From Actinomycetes bacterium (GTDB lineage Bacteria; Actinomycetota; Thermoleophilia; Solirubrobacterales; 70-9), in NCBI GenBank assembly GCA_016861045.1, contig BOKP01000003.1, positions 187,501 through 251,500 of the forward strand: a stretch of DNA of 64,000 nucleotides, given 5' to 3'. Of the stretch, positions 1 through 62,530 are shown in pieces. The notes under the pieces were generated by a model. That model was not told the origin of the DNA and did no database searches. It saw only the letters and a list, made by a program, of their open reading frames with translations. A program made the position numbers and the translations under genes. Position 1 is the first letter of the stretch. Every line of letters begins with the position of its first letter.

Positions 1-401
<401 letters not shown>

Positions 402-2051: not shown

Positions 2052-4526
2052 ATGCCCGAGAGCAGAGACAACACCGGCGACCGCGCGCGCACCGGCGACG
2101 ACGGGAATCCGATCGTGGCGCTCGAGCCCGGCCCCGAGCCGCCGGGCGTCGCGGAGCCGGCCGCGGACCCCGCGACCGCGGAGCGGTCGAGCGGCGCGCC
2201 GCCGGATCCGCGGGAGCAAGCCAAGGAGGCCGCCCGCCGGCGCGCCGCCGAGCGCAAGGCCAAGCGCGCCGAGCGCAGGGCCGAGCGCGGGCGCGAAGGC
2301 CGCAGCCTCGCTGCCCGCCTGCGGCGCTTGCGCTCCGGCGACGGCTGGCGTCGCCCGCCCGCCGACGGCGGCACCCGGCCGCGGATCAAGAAGCTCAGGT
2401 TCGTCCTCGTGCTCCTCGGCCTCGGCCTGCTGGCGATCGTCTCCTGGGTCTTCGGGGTGATGATGGCCGTCGCCCAGGACCTGCCCGACCTCGAGGCGCG
2501 GGCGCAGTACGACGCCGCCGAGAACTCGGTCGTGCTCGCCCGCGACGGCACCCCGTTGACGACGCTGACCGGCAACGAGAAGCGGATCCTCGTCGAGTCC
2601 GACGAGATCGCTCCGTCGCTGAAGCAGGCCGTCGTCGCGATCGAGGACGAGCGGTTCTACGAGCACCGGGGGATCGACTTCCTCGGGATCGCCCGCGCGC
2701 TGCAGCAGGACATCCTCTCGGGAGGCGCGGTCCAGGGAGGCTCGACGATCACCCAGCAGTTCGTCAAGAACGCGCTCGAGGCGCAGGGAAGCCGCACCGT
2801 CTTCCAGAAGCTCCGCGAGGCCGCGCTCGCCTACCAGATCGAGCGCCAGTGGCCGAAGGACAAGATCCTCACCAACTACCTGAACAACATCTACTTCGGC
2901 AACGGCGCCTACGGGGTCGAGGCCGCTGCCCACACCTACTTCGGAACCGCGCATCCCGGCTGCGGCGATCCGGACGATCGCTGTGCCGCCGCCCTCCTCC
3001 CCGAGGAGTCGGCGATGCTGGCCGCGCTGATCTCCTCTCCGGCCGCCTACGACCCGCGAACCAATCCCGACGCCGCCCGCTCGCAACGCAACGTGGTCCT
3101 GACGAAGATGCGCGAGCAGGGGGTGCTGGAGATCAGCGATGAGGACTTCCAGGCGCTGCTCGACTCCCCGGTGCCGGGCAGGGACGACATCCAGCCGCCG
3201 ACCGAGGAATCGAAGGCCCCGTACTTCACCGATTGGCTGCGCCAGCAGGTCGTCGACAAGTACGGCGCCGGGCAGGCGTTCGGGGGCGGCCTGCAGATCA
3301 AGTCCACGCTCGACCTCGGCCTCCAGCAGGCCGCGAGCCAGGCCGTCACCGACAACCTCGCCGGCCTCGGACCCACCGCCGCGGTCGTCGCCATCGAGAA
3401 CGGCACCGGCGAGGTCCTGGCCATGGTCGGCGGCCAGGACTTCGACGAGAGCCCGTTCAACCTCGCGACCAACGGGCAGCGTCAGCCCGGCTCGTCGTTC
3501 AAGCCGTTCACGCTGGTGACCGCGCTCGCCGAAGGGCATTCGCCGGACGAGACGTTCGAGTCGGCGCCGCAGCAGCTTCCGTTCGAGGCGACGGTCCGCA
3601 GGAACGGGAAGAAGAAGGAGGTCACCGACCTCTTCCGCGTCAACAACTACGACGACAACTACCTCGGCACCGCATCGATCGCGACCGCCACGACCTACTC
3701 CGACAACTCCGTCTACGCGCAGCTCGGGCTCGAGGTCGGGATCAACGACGTGGTCAAGACGGCACACGAGCTCGGCATCGCCTCGCGGATCGACGACAAC
3801 CCGGCGGTCATCCTCGGCGGGCTGACCCGCGGGGTGACGCCGCTGGAGATGGCGTACGCCTACAACACCCTGGCCAACGGCGGTGCCCGGATCAGCGGCT
3901 CGCTGGCGAGCAGGGGCAACGGCGAGGGGCCCGTGGCGATCGACCGGGTCCTCGGCCAGGACGGCGACCCCGTCCCCGACAACCTCGGCGCGAGCGGCGA
4001 GAACGAGGAGGTCTCCGAGCAGGTGGTCGACCCGACGGTCGCGGAGACCGCGACCGAGATCCTCCACACCGTCGTGACCAGCGGCACCGGCGAGCGGGCG
4101 CAGGTCGGCGACGACTACATCTGGGGCAAGACCGGGACGACCGACAACAACGCCGACGCCTGGTTCGTCGGCGCCAACGAGGAGATCACGGTCGCTGTCT
4201 GGGTCGGCTATCCGGACGGGGCGACGCCGATGGAGACCGAGTTCGGCGGCCTGCCCGTCGACGGCGGCACGCTCCCGGCGCTGATCTGGAACGAGGTCGT
4301 CTCCTCCTGGGACGCCCTGCAGGCGGAGCGCGGCGCCGGCGAGGAGACCGCGACGGTCCCTGAGACCTACGTGGCGCCACCGACGACGACCGCGCCGGCC
4401 CCGACGACGACCGCCCCGGCCCCGACGACGACCGCGCCGGCCCCGACGACGGCCCCGGTCGACCCCGCCCCGGCCCCGACCGACCCCGCCCCGGCGCCGA
4501 CCGGGACCGGCGGCGCCGTCCCGTAG
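2052..4526 (+). CDS. class A penicillin-binding protein (glycosyltransferase/transpeptidase)
   Basis: This bifunctional peptidoglycan synthase polymerises lipid II and cross-links the stem peptides outside the membrane. From the start at 2052 it has 824 residues. A basic, Arg/Ala-rich cytoplasmic tail (~50-115) precedes a single membrane anchor (~117-139). The GT51 domain carries EDERFYEHRG (catalytic Glu198). The transpeptidase has SSFK (Ser481, Lys484), SDN (550-552) and KTG (693-695). The C-terminus is a Pro/Thr-rich tail encoded by an imperfect 21-bp tandem repeat (about 4379-4452). An in-frame ATG at 1983 is an alternative start; neither has a clear ribosome binding site. The gene diverges from tyrS. 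Confidence 0.93.
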   Translation: MPESRDNTGDRARTGDDGNPIVALEPGPEPPGVAEPAADPATAERSSGAPPDPREQAKEAARRRAAERKAKRAERRAERGREGRSLAARLRRLRSGDGWRRPPADGGTRPRIKKLRFVLVLLGLGLLAIVSWVFGVMMAVAQDLPDLEARAQYDAAENSVVLARDGTPLTTLTGNEKRILVESDEIAPSLKQAVVAIEDERFYEHRGIDFLGIARALQQDILSGGAVQGGSTITQQFVKNALEAQGSRTVFQKLREAALAYQIERQWPKDKILTNYLNNIYFGNGAYGVEAAAHTYFGTAHPGCGDPDDRCAAALLPEESAMLAALISSPAAYDPRTNPDAARSQRNVVLTKMREQGVLEISDEDFQALLDSPVPGRDDIQPPTEESKAPYFTDWLRQQVVDKYGAGQAFGGGLQIKSTLDLGLQQAASQAVTDNLAGLGPTAAVVAIENGTGEVLAMVGGQDFDESPFNLATNGQRQPGSSFKPFTLVTALAEGHSPDETFESAPQQLPFEATVRRNGKKKEVTDLFRVNNYDDNYLGTASIATATTYSDNSVYAQLGLEVGINDVVKTAHELGIASRIDDNPAVILGGLTRGVTPLEMAYAYNTLANGGARISGSLASRGNGEGPVAIDRVLGQDGDPVPDNLGASGENEEVSEQVVDPTVAETATEILHTVVTSGTGERAQVGDDYIWGKTGTTDNNADAWFVGANEEITVAVWVGYPDGATPMETEFGGLPVDGGTLPALIWNEVVSSWDALQAERGAGEETATVPETYVAPPTTTAPAPTTTAPAPTTTAPAPTTAPVDPAPAPTDPAPAPTGTGGAVP

Positions 4527-46216: not shown

Positions 46217-48481
46217 TCACGAGGCCTTCTGGATCGGGGCGTAGTCGGCCATCAGCTTGCGATCGTCGCCGCCACGGAAGCGGACGACGACCACGTTGCC
46301 GGGCTCGACGGCGGTGACCACCCCCTCGCCGAAGGAAGCGTGGACGACGTCGTCGCCGACCGTCAGCTCGACCGCATCGCCACGCCTCTCCACGGCCGCG
46401 CCCCCGCGCTCGCCGCCGAAGCCGGCGCCCACGCCCCAGCCGGTCGACACCGGCGCCGTGACGTGGCGCTCGACGAGGTTGGCGGGGATCTCGCCGAGAA
46501 ACCGCGAGGGAACGCCCGCGCCCTGCGCGCCGAAGAGGCTGCGGCGGCGGGCGTAGGTGAGCGTGAGCAGCCTGCGCGCCCGGGTCAGCCCGACGTAGCA
46601 GAGCCGCCTCTCCTCCTCGAGGTTTCCCTCGTCGACCGAGCGCGAGTGCGGGAAGACGCCGTCCTCGCAGCCGATCATGAAGACCGCCTCGTACTCGAGC
46701 CCCTTCGCGTTGTGGAGGGTCATCAGGGTCACCTTGGTGTCGTCGTCGGCGAGGGCGTCCTGCTCGTTGATCAGCGCGATCTGCTCGAGGAACTCCTCGA
46801 GCGGCGCCAGCTCGCCGGGGCCTTCGAGCTCGCGGTTGGCGTCGAACTCCGCCGCCATCCCGACCAGCTCCCGGAGGTTCTCGATCCGGCCCTCCGCCTC
46901 GACCGTCCGCTCCACCTCGAGCGCCTCGGTGTAGCCCGACTCCGACAGCGTCGCCTCGAGCAGCTCGGCGACGCTGCCGCCCCGCGACGCCCGCTCGGTC
47001 AGGCTCGAGATCAGCTCGGCGAAGCGGCCGATCGCCTTGCGGGCGGCGGTGCCGAGGCCCGGGATCGAGTCGGCGGCGGCGAGGGCCTCCAGCGGCGTGG
47101 TCCCGGCCGTGTTCGCCCAGGCGAGCACCCTGCCCTCCGAGGTCCTGCCGATCCCGCGCCGCGGCGAGTTGATGATCCGTGCCAGCGCGACGCTGTCGTC
47201 GGGGTTGGCGAGCACGCTCAGGTAGGCGATCGCGTCGCGGATCTCGGCCCGCTCGTAGAACTTCGTGCCGCCGATCACCTGGTAGGGGACGTCGAAGCGG
47301 ACCAGCGTGTCCTCGAGCACCCGGCTCTGCGCGTTGGTCCGGTAGAAGACCGCGACCTCGTCACGGCCGACCCCGTGCTCGTCGACGACGCGGTCGATCT
47401 CGGCGGCGACCCAGCGGGCCTCCTCGTGCTCGTCGGCGAGCTCGGCGATCGTCACCGGATCGCCACGGCCGGAGTCGGTCCACAGGCTCTTGTCGAGCCG
47501 GTCGCGGTTGTGGGCGATGAGGCCGTTGGCGGCGTCGAGGATGGTCCCGGTCGAGCGGTAGTTCTGCTCGAGCTTGACCGTCGCCGCCGCCGGGAAGTCG
47601 CGCTCGAAGTCGAGGATGTTGCGGATGTCGGCGGCCCGGAACCCGTAGACCGACTGCGACTCGTCGCCGACCACGAACAGGTTGCCGTGCTCGCCGGCCA
47701 GCAGCTGCAAGAGCCGGTACTGGACGCGGTTGGTGTCCTGGTACTCGTCGACGAGCACGTGGCGGAAGTTGCGCGCGTAGCGCTCGCGCAGGTCGGCGAA
47801 CAGCTCGAAGAGGTTGACCGTGCGGACGAGCAGGTCGTCGAAGTCCATCGCGTTGGCCGCGTGCATCCGCCTCTCGTAGAGCTCGTAGACGTCGGCGACG
47901 ACGGTCTCGAAGAACGAGCCCTGCTCCTCGCGGACGGTCTCGGCGTCGCGCAGCCGGTTCTTGGCGCCGGAGATCTGGCTGCGGATCGACCGCGGCGGGA
48001 ACCGCTTCGGGTCGATCTCGAGCTCGTCCATGCAGCGCTTCACCATCCGCCTCGAGTCGGCCTCGTCGTAGATCGTGAAGCTGCGCTTGTAGGCGAGCCT
48101 GTCGGCGTGCTGGCGCAGGATCCGGGCGCAGGCCGAGTGGAACGTCATCACCCACATGGATCGGGCGGCCGCCCCCGTCAGCGCCGCCACCCGCTCCTTC
48201 ATCTCCCCCGCCGCCTTGTTCGTGAAGGTGATCGCGAGGATCTCGCCCGGCCGCGCCATCCCGGTCGCCAGCAGGTAGGCGATCCTGTGGGTCAGGACGC
48301 GCGTCTTGCCCGAGCCGGCGCCGGCCAGGACGAGCAGCGGCCCCTCGCCGTGGCGGACCGCCTCCGCCTGGGCCGGATTGAGGTCGGCGAGCAGGCCTTC
48401 GACCGCGGTCGCGCCGGCGCTGACCGGAGCGCCGGCGGCCTCATCCTGCTCCCGGCCGGTCTCGGAATCGGTCACGTCCAT
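46217..48481 (-). CDS. UvrD/PcrA-family ATP-dependent DNA helicase
   Basis: This 754-residue superfamily 1A 3'-5' helicase acts in nucleotide excision repair and replication restart. Motifs present: Walker A AGAGSGKT (Lys59), TFTNKAAGEM, VDEYQDTN (Walker B), GDESQSVYGFRAADI, QNYRSTGTI, TLHNAKGLEYEAVF and YVGLTRAR. The C-terminal KOW/Tudor-like tail (VGDDVVHASFGEGVV) is typical of PcrA. The ATG at 48481 follows TATCCT by 9 nt. Confidence 0.95.
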   Translation of the reverse strand: MDVTDSETGREQDEAAGAPVSAGATAVEGLLADLNPAQAEAVRHGEGPLLVLAGAGSGKTRVLTHRIAYLLATGMARPGEILAITFTNKAAGEMKERVAALTGAAARSMWVMTFHSACARILRQHADRLAYKRSFTIYDEADSRRMVKRCMDELEIDPKRFPPRSIRSQISGAKNRLRDAETVREEQGSFFETVVADVYELYERRMHAANAMDFDDLLVRTVNLFELFADLRERYARNFRHVLVDEYQDTNRVQYRLLQLLAGEHGNLFVVGDESQSVYGFRAADIRNILDFERDFPAAATVKLEQNYRSTGTILDAANGLIAHNRDRLDKSLWTDSGRGDPVTIAELADEHEEARWVAAEIDRVVDEHGVGRDEVAVFYRTNAQSRVLEDTLVRFDVPYQVIGGTKFYERAEIRDAIAYLSVLANPDDSVALARIINSPRRGIGRTSEGRVLAWANTAGTTPLEALAAADSIPGLGTAARKAIGRFAELISSLTERASRGGSVAELLEATLSESGYTEALEVERTVEAEGRIENLRELVGMAAEFDANRELEGPGELAPLEEFLEQIALINEQDALADDDTKVTLMTLHNAKGLEYEAVFMIGCEDGVFPHSRSVDEGNLEEERRLCYVGLTRARRLLTLTYARRRSLFGAQGAGVPSRFLGEIPANLVERHVTAPVSTGWGVGAGFGGERGGAAVERRGDAVELTVGDDVVHASFGEGVVTAVEPGNVVVVRFRGGDDRKLMADYAPIQKAS

Positions 48482-48490
48482 GGGCGGCCG

Positions 48491-48496
48491 AGGATA
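48491..48496 (-). promoter_or_regulatory. helicase -10 element (leaderless type)
   Basis: TATCCT on the minus strand, 9 nt before the ATG. Confidence 0.45.
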
Positions 48497-49167
48497 GCCG
48501 CGCGCCCGGCGCGCGCGGGGCTGCCGCGGCGTTCGGCGGGGTGGCGGCCGTTTCGGCGGGCGGCGCAGTCGGCGATCGATGTCGGGCCGGTGCCACGGGC
48601 GTCGGGCGGCACCGGGGGTCGGCCACCGAAGGGGACGAATCGCCGCCCAGGGCCCGTTTCGTAACGCTCGACCGCGCTCTCGCCACGGAAGTTGCGAAAT
48701 CGGGGCTGTGGGACCAGCTTCGTAAACCCACACCCGCGGCTGACCGAAATGCAAGTGACGTTGTCGGGGCCGCGGTGCTCCCGGCCGCGGTGCTCGCTCG
48801 AGGCCGCCGTTCGCTGCCATCCACCCCGCCTACTTCGTGACACTCGGACGTCGGCAGACACCGAGAGTCACGTTCCGGGTCGTATGTGCCCCTTTCGTGA
48901 CAGTCAGACCCTCCGTCTCGTCGAGATCCACGTTGCGGTCAGCCGCTCCCCGACGTTGCGGTCAGCCGCTCCCCGACGTTGCGGTCAGCCGCTCCCCGAC
49001 GTTGCGGTCAGCCGCTCCCCGACGTTGCGGTCAGCCGCTCCCCGACGTTGCGGTCAGCCCGCTCCCCGCGCGCCAGGCTGTGCAGCGCCTCCCGCAGCCC
49101 ACCAGGGCTGCCGTGATCCGGCGCGGCGGCTCCGGCCGAAGCGGACGGCAGTCGGCCGGGGCGATGA
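48497..49167. other. 670-bp non-coding region with repeats
   Basis: This is the longest gene-free stretch in the window apart from the rRNA leader, and it is lower in G+C than its surroundings. It contains scattered degenerate copies of a TTTCGTRAC-like motif (near 48657, inverted near 48689, 48718, 48832 and 48893) and then a 23-bp tandem array. No coding frame survives across the array. It separates the helicase promoter from the 3' end of cysE. Confidence 0.6.
48930..49068. repeat. 23-bp tandem repeat, six copies
   Basis: Units begin at 48930, 48953, 48976, 48999, 49022 and 49045 with the core ACGTTGCGGTCAGCCG followed by CTCCCCG. Five are identical; the last has one inserted C. The period is not a multiple of three, so it is not a coding repeat, and there are no spacers, so it is not CRISPR. 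Confidence 0.95.
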
Positions 49168-49893
49168 TCACCCGCCGGCGGTGGTCGGTCCGCGCTTCGG
49201 GCGAAGCTCGTGGACCTCGGCGCCCGCCTCGCCGCCGTCGAGGTCGGCGAGGCGCTTCTCGATCGCGGCGAGGCGGTCCGAGAGCGCCTTGATCGCGTCG
49301 GCGATCGGATCGGGGAGGTGGATCCAGTCGGTGTCGGGCCCCTCCGGGCGCCTGCCCTCGACGCGGACGACGTGCCCGGGGTTGCCGACGACCGTCGCCC
49401 GCCGGGGAACGTCGGCGATGACGACGGTGTTCGCCCCGACCTTGGCGCCGTGGCCGACCGTGATCGGGCCGAGCAGCTTCGCGCCGGAGCCGATCGTGAC
49501 GTTGTCCTCGACCGTCGGGTGGCGCTTGCCGCGCTGGAACCCGGTCCCCCCGAGCGTCACCCCCTGAAAGATCGTCACCCGGTCGCCGATCTCGGCCGTC
49601 TCCCCGATCACCACGCCCGAGCCGTGGTCGATGAAGAAGCCCTCGCCGATCCTCGCGCCGGGGTGGATCTCGATCCCGGTCAGCGCCCGCGTGGCGTAGA
49701 CGATGATCCGCGGCACGAGCTTCCAGCCGTTGCGGTGGAACGCGTGGGCGACGCGGTGGGCGAGGATCGCCTGGACGCCGCCCCAGGAGGAGAGGATCCC
49801 GAAAAAGCTCACGTCGCGCGCGGCGGGATCACGGTCTCGCGCGGTCGCGACGTCGTCGCGAACCTCCTTCCAGATCCTCCGTAGCACGCCCAT
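49168..49893 (-). CDS. cysE: serine O-acetyltransferase
   Basis: This 241-residue hexapeptide-repeat enzyme makes O-acetylserine from serine and acetyl-CoA. It has GIEIHPGARIGEGFFIDHGSGVVIGETAEIGDRVTIFQGVTLGG and PTVEDNVTIGSGAKLLGPI, with the catalytic His in IDHGSG. It is followed by a longer than usual acidic C-terminal tail. GAGG lies 10 nt before the ATG. It starts 11 bp after cysK. Confidence 0.95.
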   Translation of the reverse strand: MGVLRRIWKEVRDDVATARDRDPAARDVSFFGILSSWGGVQAILAHRVAHAFHRNGWKLVPRIIVYATRALTGIEIHPGARIGEGFFIDHGSGVVIGETAEIGDRVTIFQGVTLGGTGFQRGKRHPTVEDNVTIGSGAKLLGPITVGHGAKVGANTVVIADVPRRATVVGNPGHVVRVEGRRPEGPDTDWIHLPDPIADAIKALSDRLAAIEKRLADLDGGEAGAEVHELRPKRGPTTAGG

Positions 49894-61606: not shown

Positions 61607-62530
61607 ATGACCGAGCAGGACCCCCAGCAACAACCGAACGCGCCGGCGGGTCCGATCCGGTGGACCCAGGCATCGTGGCCGGCGCCGTCGGGCAGCGTCC
61701 AGTCCACGATCGACCAGATGACCGACCAGCTCCAGACGGTCATCGCGGCCGCCGAGCGCGCGGCCGAGGCGATCCGCCGCGACGCCGAGGAGCAGGCCAG
61801 GCGCCACCTGGCCGAGGCCCAGCGGAAGGCGGATCGCCTCACCGCCGAGCGGGTCGGCCTGATCTCGGAGCTGACCGACGACCTGATTCGCCACGCCGGC
61901 AACGTCCGCGACCATTCCGAGCAGATGGTCCGGGCGCTCGAGGACGCGATCAGCTCGGTCACCGGCAAGCTCGAGCAGCCCGGGCTGAGCGATCGCCTCG
62001 ACCGGAGCCTTCCGGGGCCGCCGCTTCCGCCGGGGGCCGCGGCCGCGGTGGGACCCGCGACGGCCGCTCCGGCCGAGCCGGCGACCCCCGCGCCCGCCGA
62101 GCCGCCCCCGCCGCCGGCCGCCGTTCCGGCCGAGCCGCCCCCGCCGCAACCCGCGGCCCCCGGGCCGGCACCGTCACGGGCCGCGCCGGTCCAGGCGCCT
62201 CCGACCGGCACCTACACGGACATCGTCGGCGCCCCTCCCCCGCCCCCGCCGGCCTCCGCCCCCGCCCCGCTGCCGCATCCACCGCCGCACCCGGAGCCCG
62301 CCACCGGGCCGCCGCAGCCGACTCCGGAGGCCGCCGCCGCGGCCGCGGCGGCCCCCGTGGTTCCCGCCGGCGGCGACGGGCCCGAGCACGTGGCCGAGGC
62401 GATCGACCATGCGCGCCGGCTCGCCGATGCCGGCAGCGACCGCGAGACGATCGCCAGCGTCCTCCGCCAGCTCTGGGGGGTCAGCGACCCCGACCCGATC
62501 GTCGACCGCGTCCTCGGCGGGCGGCGCTGA
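61607..62530 (+). CDS. DivIVA-like coiled coil with long proline-rich linker
   Basis: This 307-residue protein has an N-terminal helical region (~30-125; AAERAAEAIRRDAEEQARRH, then AQRKADRLTAERVGLISEL) resembling DivIVA/SepIVA-type coiled coils. A Pro/Ala linker of about 130 residues (~130-265) and a small C-terminal helical domain (~270-307, HVAEAIDHARRLADAGSDRE) follow. Such architecture often marks cell-division or polar-growth scaffolds in Actinobacteria; that is inference. It is cytoplasmic, with no signal. Confidence 0.7.
   Translation: MTEQDPQQQPNAPAGPIRWTQASWPAPSGSVQSTIDQMTDQLQTVIAAAERAAEAIRRDAEEQARRHLAEAQRKADRLTAERVGLISELTDDLIRHAGNVRDHSEQMVRALEDAISSVTGKLEQPGLSDRLDRSLPGPPLPPGAAAAVGPATAAPAEPATPAPAEPPPPPAAVPAEPPPPQPAAPGPAPSRAAPVQAPPTGTYTDIVGAPPPPPPASAPAPLPHPPPHPEPATGPPQPTPEAAAAAAAAPVVPAGGDGPEHVAEAIDHARRLADAGSDRETIASVLRQLWGVSDPDPIVDRVLGGRR

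What the first reader, a model, noticed from the sequence alone, without database searches (positions are those of the whole stretch)
48657..49068. Non-coding region with dispersed TTTCGTRAC motifs and a 23-bp tandem array
Several degenerate copies of a TTTCGTRAC-like motif in both orientations precede six head-to-tail 23-bp units. The unit reads CCGCAACGT on the complement, similar to the TTCGCAAC form of the dispersed motif, so the array may derive from it. The period is close to two helical turns and not a multiple of three. Possibilities are a protein-binding array, a replication-slippage product or a chromosomal architecture site.
Basis: seen in the sequence. Interest (0 to 1): 0.5.

Follow-up and report, generated by a model that had tools for sequence, protein, structure and literature searches.

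The report
Scattered 60-base palindromic repeat beside slippage array
The motif cluster is a copy of a scattered palindromic DNA repeat of about 120 bases, built of two units on a fixed 60-base spacing and found in several related actinobacterial genomes, and the neighbouring 23-base array is probably a recent copying stutter that grew from its edge.

Summary
The array (48930-49068) is six 23-bp units, five identical, the last with one extra C; its 13-bp core occurs only here in the genome. The dispersed motifs are not a free motif: exact TTTCGTRAC occurs seven times in 2.70 Mb. They are arms of a structured repeat. At 48833-48937 lies a head-to-tail dimer of a 45-nt imperfect palindrome (TTTCGTGGCACTCG-N15-CGAGATCCACGAA) with a 15-nt linker and exactly 60 bp between units. 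Eleven such dimers lie in this genome, aligned without one indel, arms 73-83% but loops 40-45% identical. Relatives in the same order carry 60-61-bp arrays with other, still complementary arms; one has at least 35 loci, some near-identical. A congeneric genome has 46 bp where this one has 686. No RAYT-type (Y1) transposase in 10 of 10 genomes tested, no Rfam family, no terminator. Best reading: a REP-like, probably non-autonomous mobile palindrome family, RAYT-independent and head-to-tail, with a slippage array seeded at the 3' end of one copy. The mobilising enzyme is unidentified, and mobility is inferred.

The parts
48482..49167 (.). 686-bp gap between cysE (my reading; Pfam Hexapep) and pcrA/uvrD, both on the - strand, holding all features below
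   Evidence: same-genus G002 has 46 bp here (L021 1455-1500)
48833..48937 (+). intact 105-nt core of the dispersed element (two units head to tail, about 115-120 bp with its ends)
   Evidence: R2 91.6 bits, E 2.3e-19 in the window (this copy is one of R2's 11 training rows); member of an 11-copy family
48833..48877 (+). unit 1: imperfect palindrome CTTCGTGACACTCGG..CCGAGAGTCACGTT
48878..48892 (+). 15-nt linker with conserved AT centre
48893..48937 (+). unit 2, 60 bp after unit 1
48657..48762 (+). possible degenerate second copy of the element (first unit with a 9-bp stem, second unit decayed and shifted by 1)
   Evidence: R1 38.8 bits but this unit was in R1's training set; the untrained R2 gives only 15.6 bits, E 0.039, no better than background hits in the window: uncertain
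48930..49068 (+). 23-bp tandem array, 6 units, starting inside the 3' arm of unit 2
49068..49168 (.). piece of a second, unrelated dispersed repeat (GGCAGCCC..GGGCTGCCGTGATC type), 3 other places in this genome

Best explanation
The region is a landing place of a dispersed REP-like palindromic element, and the array is a slippage product at its edge. The basic unit is a 60-bp imperfect palindrome: 13-14-nt arms around a loop of about 15 nt, closed by half of a small palindromic linker. The usual element is two units head to tail (about 120 bp). Inferred: these are miniature, non-autonomous mobile palindromes, moved as folded single-stranded DNA or by an enzyme that recognises the arms, and tolerated mainly between convergent or same-strand genes. 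Old copies keep arms and spacing while loops drift. One copy inserted between cysE and pcrA; polymerase then slipped at the palindrome's 3' edge and amplified 8 nt of the element plus 15 nt of flank into six tandem copies. Shown: family, architecture, spacing, dispersal, absence of Y1 transposases in the genomes tested, longer gap than in the relative, place where the array starts. Inferred: mobility, its enzyme, insertion here rather than loss in the relative, and slippage as the mechanism.
For: 11 dimers in G000 with 60-bp spacing in 11 of 11 and no indel in 105 columns; core identity 62.5%, flank identity 34%. Arms 73-83% identical, loops 40-45% (35% expected from composition). Related arrays with other arms in genera g29 and g33 and in G029 of the same family. 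In 22 dimers from 8 genomes arm complementarity far exceeds shuffles (covariation 0.336 against 0.126, 0 of 500; slid registers at most 0.102). In G124 0.797 and 0.834 paired against 0.647 and 0.671 with permuted arms (0 of 2000; 25 of 35 elements kept). Recent amplification in G124: L262 and L267 match L271 at 93-94% over 119 and 114 bp only, in different flanks. Outermost bases of G000 copies are complementary element by element (cols -5..1: 41 of 77, 27.8 expected, p 0.002). Placement: G000 6 convergent, 3 same-strand, 0 divergent (9 of 11 callable); G124 12, 12, 3 (27 of 35 callable) against 8, 28, 11 for other gene pairs in those G124 loci. Gap in G002 46 bp. Array starts at element column 98.
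Against: No mobilising enzyme found; Y1 transposases absent in 10 of 10 genomes, eight of which carry the element; no other transposase family was searched. No target-site duplication was established. In G000 no two copies are close (at most 71%), so there is no sign of recent movement there. Within G000 alone arm covariation is weak (78.1% paired against 76.6%, 47 of 500; p 0.11 for arms 2-14; unit 1 p 0.007, unit 2 p 0.50). Loop 1 and loop 2 are not complementary (p 0.66). The end test covers nine blocks, some overlapping, uncorrected; the next block out gives p 0.99. All four arms of an element co-vary, so subfamily descent explains part of the covariation. My simple gene caller put 1 of 11 G000 and 4 of 35 G124 copies inside a reading frame. 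G124 is rated 75% complete with 5% contamination, so some copies may belong to another organism.
Confidence: 0.62

Rival explanations
1. The dimers are functional double-stranded DNA sites: four 13-bp half-sites in alternating orientation, centres 28, 32 and 28 bp apart, bound by a symmetric protein complex for chromosome organisation. The protein's specificity drifts between lineages, so arms change together.
For: Arms conserved while loops are near random in G000, with no indel in 11 copies; weak covariation within G000, as for a fixed binding specificity; all four arms of an element share their sequence; copies on four of five contigs.
Against: No copy found in congeneric G001 and G002 (no match at E 0.01; best E 0.05; G001 is 89% complete); within G124 many different arm sequences coexist; copy number runs from none found to at least 35 loci between relatives; near-identical copies in G124 and the excess between convergent genes fit insertion better.
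Confidence: 0.2
2. The units act as RNA: stem-loops in the 3' ends of messages, stabilising them or ending transcription of convergent genes.
For: Often behind genes; three of the 12 convergent G124 copies lie within 20 bp of both neighbouring genes; stems preserved between genomes; some dimers fold better than shuffles as single strands (DNA parameters; 6 of the 11 G000 dimers at z -2 or below).
Against: No terminator with a T run in 48400-49300; no consistent strand bias in wobble pairs: G000 G-T 6 and A-C 17, G124 G-T 31 and A-C 24 after collapsing; no Rfam match at gathering score; the window dimer folds no better than shuffles (z -0.60). Here the copy lies between two co-directional genes, not convergent ones.
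Confidence: 0.13
3. The 23-bp array is an assembly artefact or an independent regulatory array of pcrA.
For: It lies upstream of pcrA; identical tandem units are prone to mis-assembly (recalled).
Against: Core unique in the genome, begins in the arm of a dispersed element, and the last unit carries its own insertion, as expected of a real array.
Confidence: 0.05

Closest known systems
GTAG-tagged REPs / REPINs / BIMEs (RAYT-mobilised; PMC2817692 and PMC3116915: abstracts seen; PMC3733652: abstract, 12 passages and the first part of the discussion seen)
   Same: Short extragenic palindromes, often paired, preferentially between convergent or co-directional genes, species-specific families, probable miniature mobile DNA.
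   Different: No Y1/RAYT gene in 10 of 10 genomes tested; pairs are head to tail at about 60 bp instead of inverted; long arms with a loop of about 15 nt; no GTAG tag seen at the stem foot.
CGTC-tagged REPs (PMC3733652)
   Same: Palindromic, extragenic, and in that paper without a dedicated transposase.
   Different: Published CGTC stems are 8-9 bp with 4-5-nt loops and mainly head-head dimers; these have arms of 13-14 nt, loops of 15-16 and head-to-tail units.
MITEs (recalled, no paper read)
   Same: About 120 bp, complementary ends, scattered, near-identical copies in one genome.
   Different: No parent transposon and no target-site duplication shown; internal tandem structure on a fixed period.
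Minisatellite / VNTR (for the 23-bp array; recalled)
   Same: Identical head-to-tail units, unique locus, period not a multiple of three.
   Different: Copy-number variation between strains could not be tested.

Membership tests
REP / REPIN (GTAG superfamily) | short extragenic palindrome in several copies | tested here: met
   11 copies in G000, at least 35 loci in G124; mostly intergenic by a simple caller
REP / REPIN (GTAG superfamily) | cognate RAYT (Y1 transposase, PF01797) in the genome | tested here: not met
   0 of 10 genomes, eight of them carriers; control genomes ring in 5 of 14; several of the ten are incomplete, and carriers G029, G121 and G177 were not tested
REP / REPIN (GTAG superfamily) | inverted (head-head or tail-tail) pairs | tested here: not met
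   pairs are direct repeats at 60 bp in G000 and 59-62 bp in G124, though each unit is itself nearly palindromic and matches on both strands
REP / REPIN (GTAG superfamily) | unpaired GTAG tag at the stem foot | tested here: not met
   by eye in the aligned copies
CGTC REPs | stem 8-9 bp, loop 4-5, head-head dimers | tested here: not met
   arms 13-14 nt, loops 15-16, head to tail
MITE | terminal inverted repeats | tested here: met
   ends complementary element by element in G000, p 0.002, uncorrected for nine blocks tested; similar ends in G124 by eye
MITE | target-site duplication and parent transposase | tested here: inconclusive
   no duplication seen by eye at L262 and L267; no parent searched beyond PF01797
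CRISPR array | near-identical repeats with unique spacers | tested here: not met
   two-unit arrays at 11 dispersed loci, conserved parts diverged; cas genes not searched
Intrinsic terminator | GC hairpin followed by a T run | tested here: not met
   0 found in 48400-49300
Known structured RNA (Rfam 15) | covariance-model match at gathering score | tested here: not met
   0 matches in 16 loci; only two sub-threshold miRNA matches at 48400-49300
Minisatellite by slippage | identical tandem units at a unique locus | tested here: met
Minisatellite by slippage | copy-number variation between strains | not testable with these tools
   no conspecific strain held; G002 lacks the region

The most novel reading that the evidence does not exclude
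A separate class of bacterial palindromic element, built of head-to-tail 60-bp quasi-palindromes on a fixed ruler, spread in this actinobacterial order by an enzyme that is not a Y1/RAYT transposase and that follows the hairpin or arm symmetry rather than one fixed sequence, so that each lineage carries its own arm alphabet.
Probability: 0.3. Interest if true: 0.65.

Novelty: new variant of a known kind. Interest (0 to 1): 0.46.

Why it matters
RAYT transposases are the proposed movers of GTAG-type REPs (PMC2817692, PMC3116915); the CGTC type was left without an enzyme in PMC3733652. A family in another phylum with no Y1 transposase in the genomes tested, long arms and a 60-bp head-to-tail ruler, with both old copies (G000) and near-identical ones (G124), gives a tractable place to look for another way of moving hairpin DNA. 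It also shows how a one-off tandem array can be seeded at the edge of such an element.

Tried and rejected
1. TTTCGTRAC as a genome-wide motif: 7 sites in 2.70 Mb, reversed control 2; rejected as a stand-alone element.

2. A first gapped pattern for the family was wrongly written (one N too many before CACG) and missed even the window's own copy. Its '2 of 50' carries no information and was replaced by covariance models R1-R3.

3. Long single hairpin with loop 1 pairing loop 2, suggested by folds: tested by permutation and rejected (53 of 165 pairs, 33% expected).

4. RNA with a fixed transcribed strand: G-T and A-C mismatches show no consistent bias.

5. Remnant of the lipoprotein gene that lies between cysE and pcrA in some relatives: no protein-level similarity in the window's gap (E up to 10). 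In one search I had read five gaps from the wrong strand; redid them.

6. Phage or plasmid cargo: no match in viral contigs (one exact pattern), phages (one other G000 copy) or plasmids (a G124 copy, the window region).

7. Weak model hits read by eye: L185, L189, L234, L235 and L236 show no 60-bp array and I treat them as chance; L250 is unclear. In one search I had printed the wrong stretch of L234, L236 and L240; one search corrected this, and L240 (G177) is a real array. Not every weak hit was read. R3 over 29 loci of named records (L067-L095) gave 4 weak matches (best E 0.005), not read further.

8. The array's similarity to C1:438218 lies in a reading frame that I read as superoxide dismutase (no family search) and is taken as chance.

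Full report
What is there. The window (73% G+C) is contig C3:187501-251500 of a 2.70-Mb, five-contig genome, G000. The first 22 cysE matches listed in named records are 61-73% identical and mostly titled Solirubrobacterales or Solirubrobacteraceae, so I place the genome in or near that order by inference. The finding lies in the 686-bp gap 48482-49167 between two genes on the - strand: pcrA/uvrD (Pfam UvrD-helicase and UvrD_C) and a hexapeptide acyltransferase (Pfam Hexapep) that I read as cysE from its neighbour, which I read as cysK. The 23-bp array is six units, five identical, the last with one extra C, and its 13-bp core is found nowhere else in the genome. Exact TTTCGTRAC occurs seven times in the genome against two for the reversed control.

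From motif to element. Searching the genome with the region's DNA returned a 72%-identical stretch at C4:318289 that kept both motif positions 60 bp apart, and the motif search showed a third such place at C1:690289. Aligned without internal gaps, the units are 45-nt imperfect palindromes. A covariance model of seven units (R1) found the strong matches in G000 in pairs with 60 bp between units. Eleven of these pairs gave an ungapped 105-column alignment and a second model, R2, with E values from 5e-20 to 2e-14 for the eleven (these are its own training rows, so the E values are not independent). Eight of the eleven had neither unit in R1's training set. In congeneric G001 and G002 R2 finds nothing at E 0.01 and R1's best is 0.05.

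Constraint in G000. Core identity averages 62.5%, flanks 34%. Arms are 73-83% identical between copies; the 15-nt loops are 40-45% identical, little above the 35% expected from composition. A family decaying neutrally would lose arms as fast as loops and would gather indels; these have none in 105 columns. So arms and spacing were held either by selection at each site or by the need to be recognised when each copy was made. Within G000 the arms are not clearly compensatory (in one search unit 1 p 0.007, unit 2 p 0.50), whereas the outermost bases of each copy are complementary element by element (p 0.002; nine blocks tested, some overlapping, uncorrected; the next three bases out give p 0.99).

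The family elsewhere. R2 over 232 genomes of the order matched 21 at E 0.01, and R3, built from 22 dimers of eight genomes, matched 12 of 399 genomes of the class at E 0.001. The tables show 17 and 9 scored candidates per genome, so both searches undercount; some weak hits are chance. By eye, 60-61-bp arrays are present in G029 of the same family and in G121, G122, G124, G125, G177, G179, G181, G182 and G183; five weak hits looked like chance and one is unclear. Ten genomes searched more deeply gave up to 78 matches on both strands, in G124. I fetched 32 further G124 loci chosen from that list, 35 with the three already held; all 35 score again, as they must. Arm sequences differ between and within genomes (for example TTTCCTGACACTCG, TTTCGTGTAACTCG, TAACCGCACACTCG, TTTCTCGCCACTCG) but stay complementary: covariation score 0.336 against 0.126 in shuffles and at most 0.102 in slid registers. 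In G124 true arm pairs match 80-83% against 65-67% permuted (25 of 35 elements after collapsing one subfamily). That same test shows that all four arms of an element agree, so it cannot tell a folded strand from a symmetric protein site. Unit spacing in G124 is 61 (18), 60 (15), 59 (1) and 62 (1). One G124 subfamily looks recent: L262 and L267 match L271 at 94% and 93% over 119 and 114 bp and no further, while other members share a larger repeat of up to about 340-370 bp.

Where it sits. With a simple gene caller of my own, G000 copies lie between convergent genes in 6, same-strand in 3 and divergent in 0 of 9 callable (of 11; 1 fell inside a reading frame, 1 lacked a neighbour); G124 12, 12 and 3 of 27 callable (of 35; 4 inside, 4 lacking a neighbour); other gene pairs in the G124 loci are 8, 28 and 11. 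This is the placement reported for REPs in PMC3733652 (passages seen). At this locus G002 has 46 bp. One search returned loci for the 30 best cysE matches of 50 genomes; of the 29 that are not the window's own, 28 show pcrA. Eleven of these 28 have some 740 bp or more between the cysE stop and the conserved start of pcrA (753 in the window, 49-157 in the other 17): ten hold a related lipoprotein-like gene there and one a gene that I read as glyoxalase-like. The window's gap shows no trace of the lipoprotein gene. It is therefore extra sequence relative to G002, and it holds the element, its array and part of a second dispersed repeat. Gain here rather than loss in G002 is an inference.

Mechanism. 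The array's first unit starts at column 98 of the intact element, so the array joins the last 8 nt of the element, 5 of them arm, to 15 nt of flank. Identical units, a unique locus and a palindrome edge are what slippage at a stalled polymerase would leave; that step is inferred. For the element I favour non-autonomous mobile hairpin DNA of the REP kind. The standard enzyme is missing: PF01797 is absent in 10 of 10 genomes, eight of them carriers, while the control set rings in 5 of 14. Head-to-tail pairing, arm length and loop size also differ from the published GTAG and CGTC classes (PMC3733652). So I call it REP-like in behaviour but not a member of either class.

Print. Full-text searches for Thermoleophilia or Solirubrobacter with repeat, palindrome or MITE terms, and for REP terms with Actinobacteria, listed five papers in all, none of them on this family by title and start of abstract; I did not open those five. 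The library lacks most subscription journals, so this is not proof of novelty.

Changes made on checking: the training-set count (eight, not seven), the number of genomes in R3 (eight, not seven), the status of L240 (a real array), and the strength of the placement claim.

Noticed in passing
window 49068-49168; G000 C4:307903, C1:884375, C1:468263: Second dispersed repeat with a GGCAGCCC..GGGCTGCCGTGATC-type hairpin, 70-78% identical at three other places in the genome and one weaker match in G001.
   Followed up: partly
L039, L046, L048, L050-L052, L057-L060, L063 between cysE and pcrA: In 11 of 28 relatives the same junction holds a lipoprotein-like gene of about 200 aa or (L039) a glyoxalase-like gene, so it is a variable junction.
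   Followed up: partly
G124 loci L264, L271, L272, L273, L277, L282: A subfamily of the element is embedded in a larger repeat of up to about 340-370 bp, with short GCCACC-type tandem repeats beside it in some copies.
   Followed up: partly
L245 and L240 (G177), L244 (G125), L209 and L210 (G179): Longer arrays of three to five or more units on the 60-61-bp period, in G179 running to the ends of contigs, so true lengths may be greater.
   Followed up: partly
window 4380-4504 and 62057-62146: Other tandem repeats found by the repeat finder (periods 10-54 bp), probably low-complexity coding sequence; not examined.
   Followed up: no
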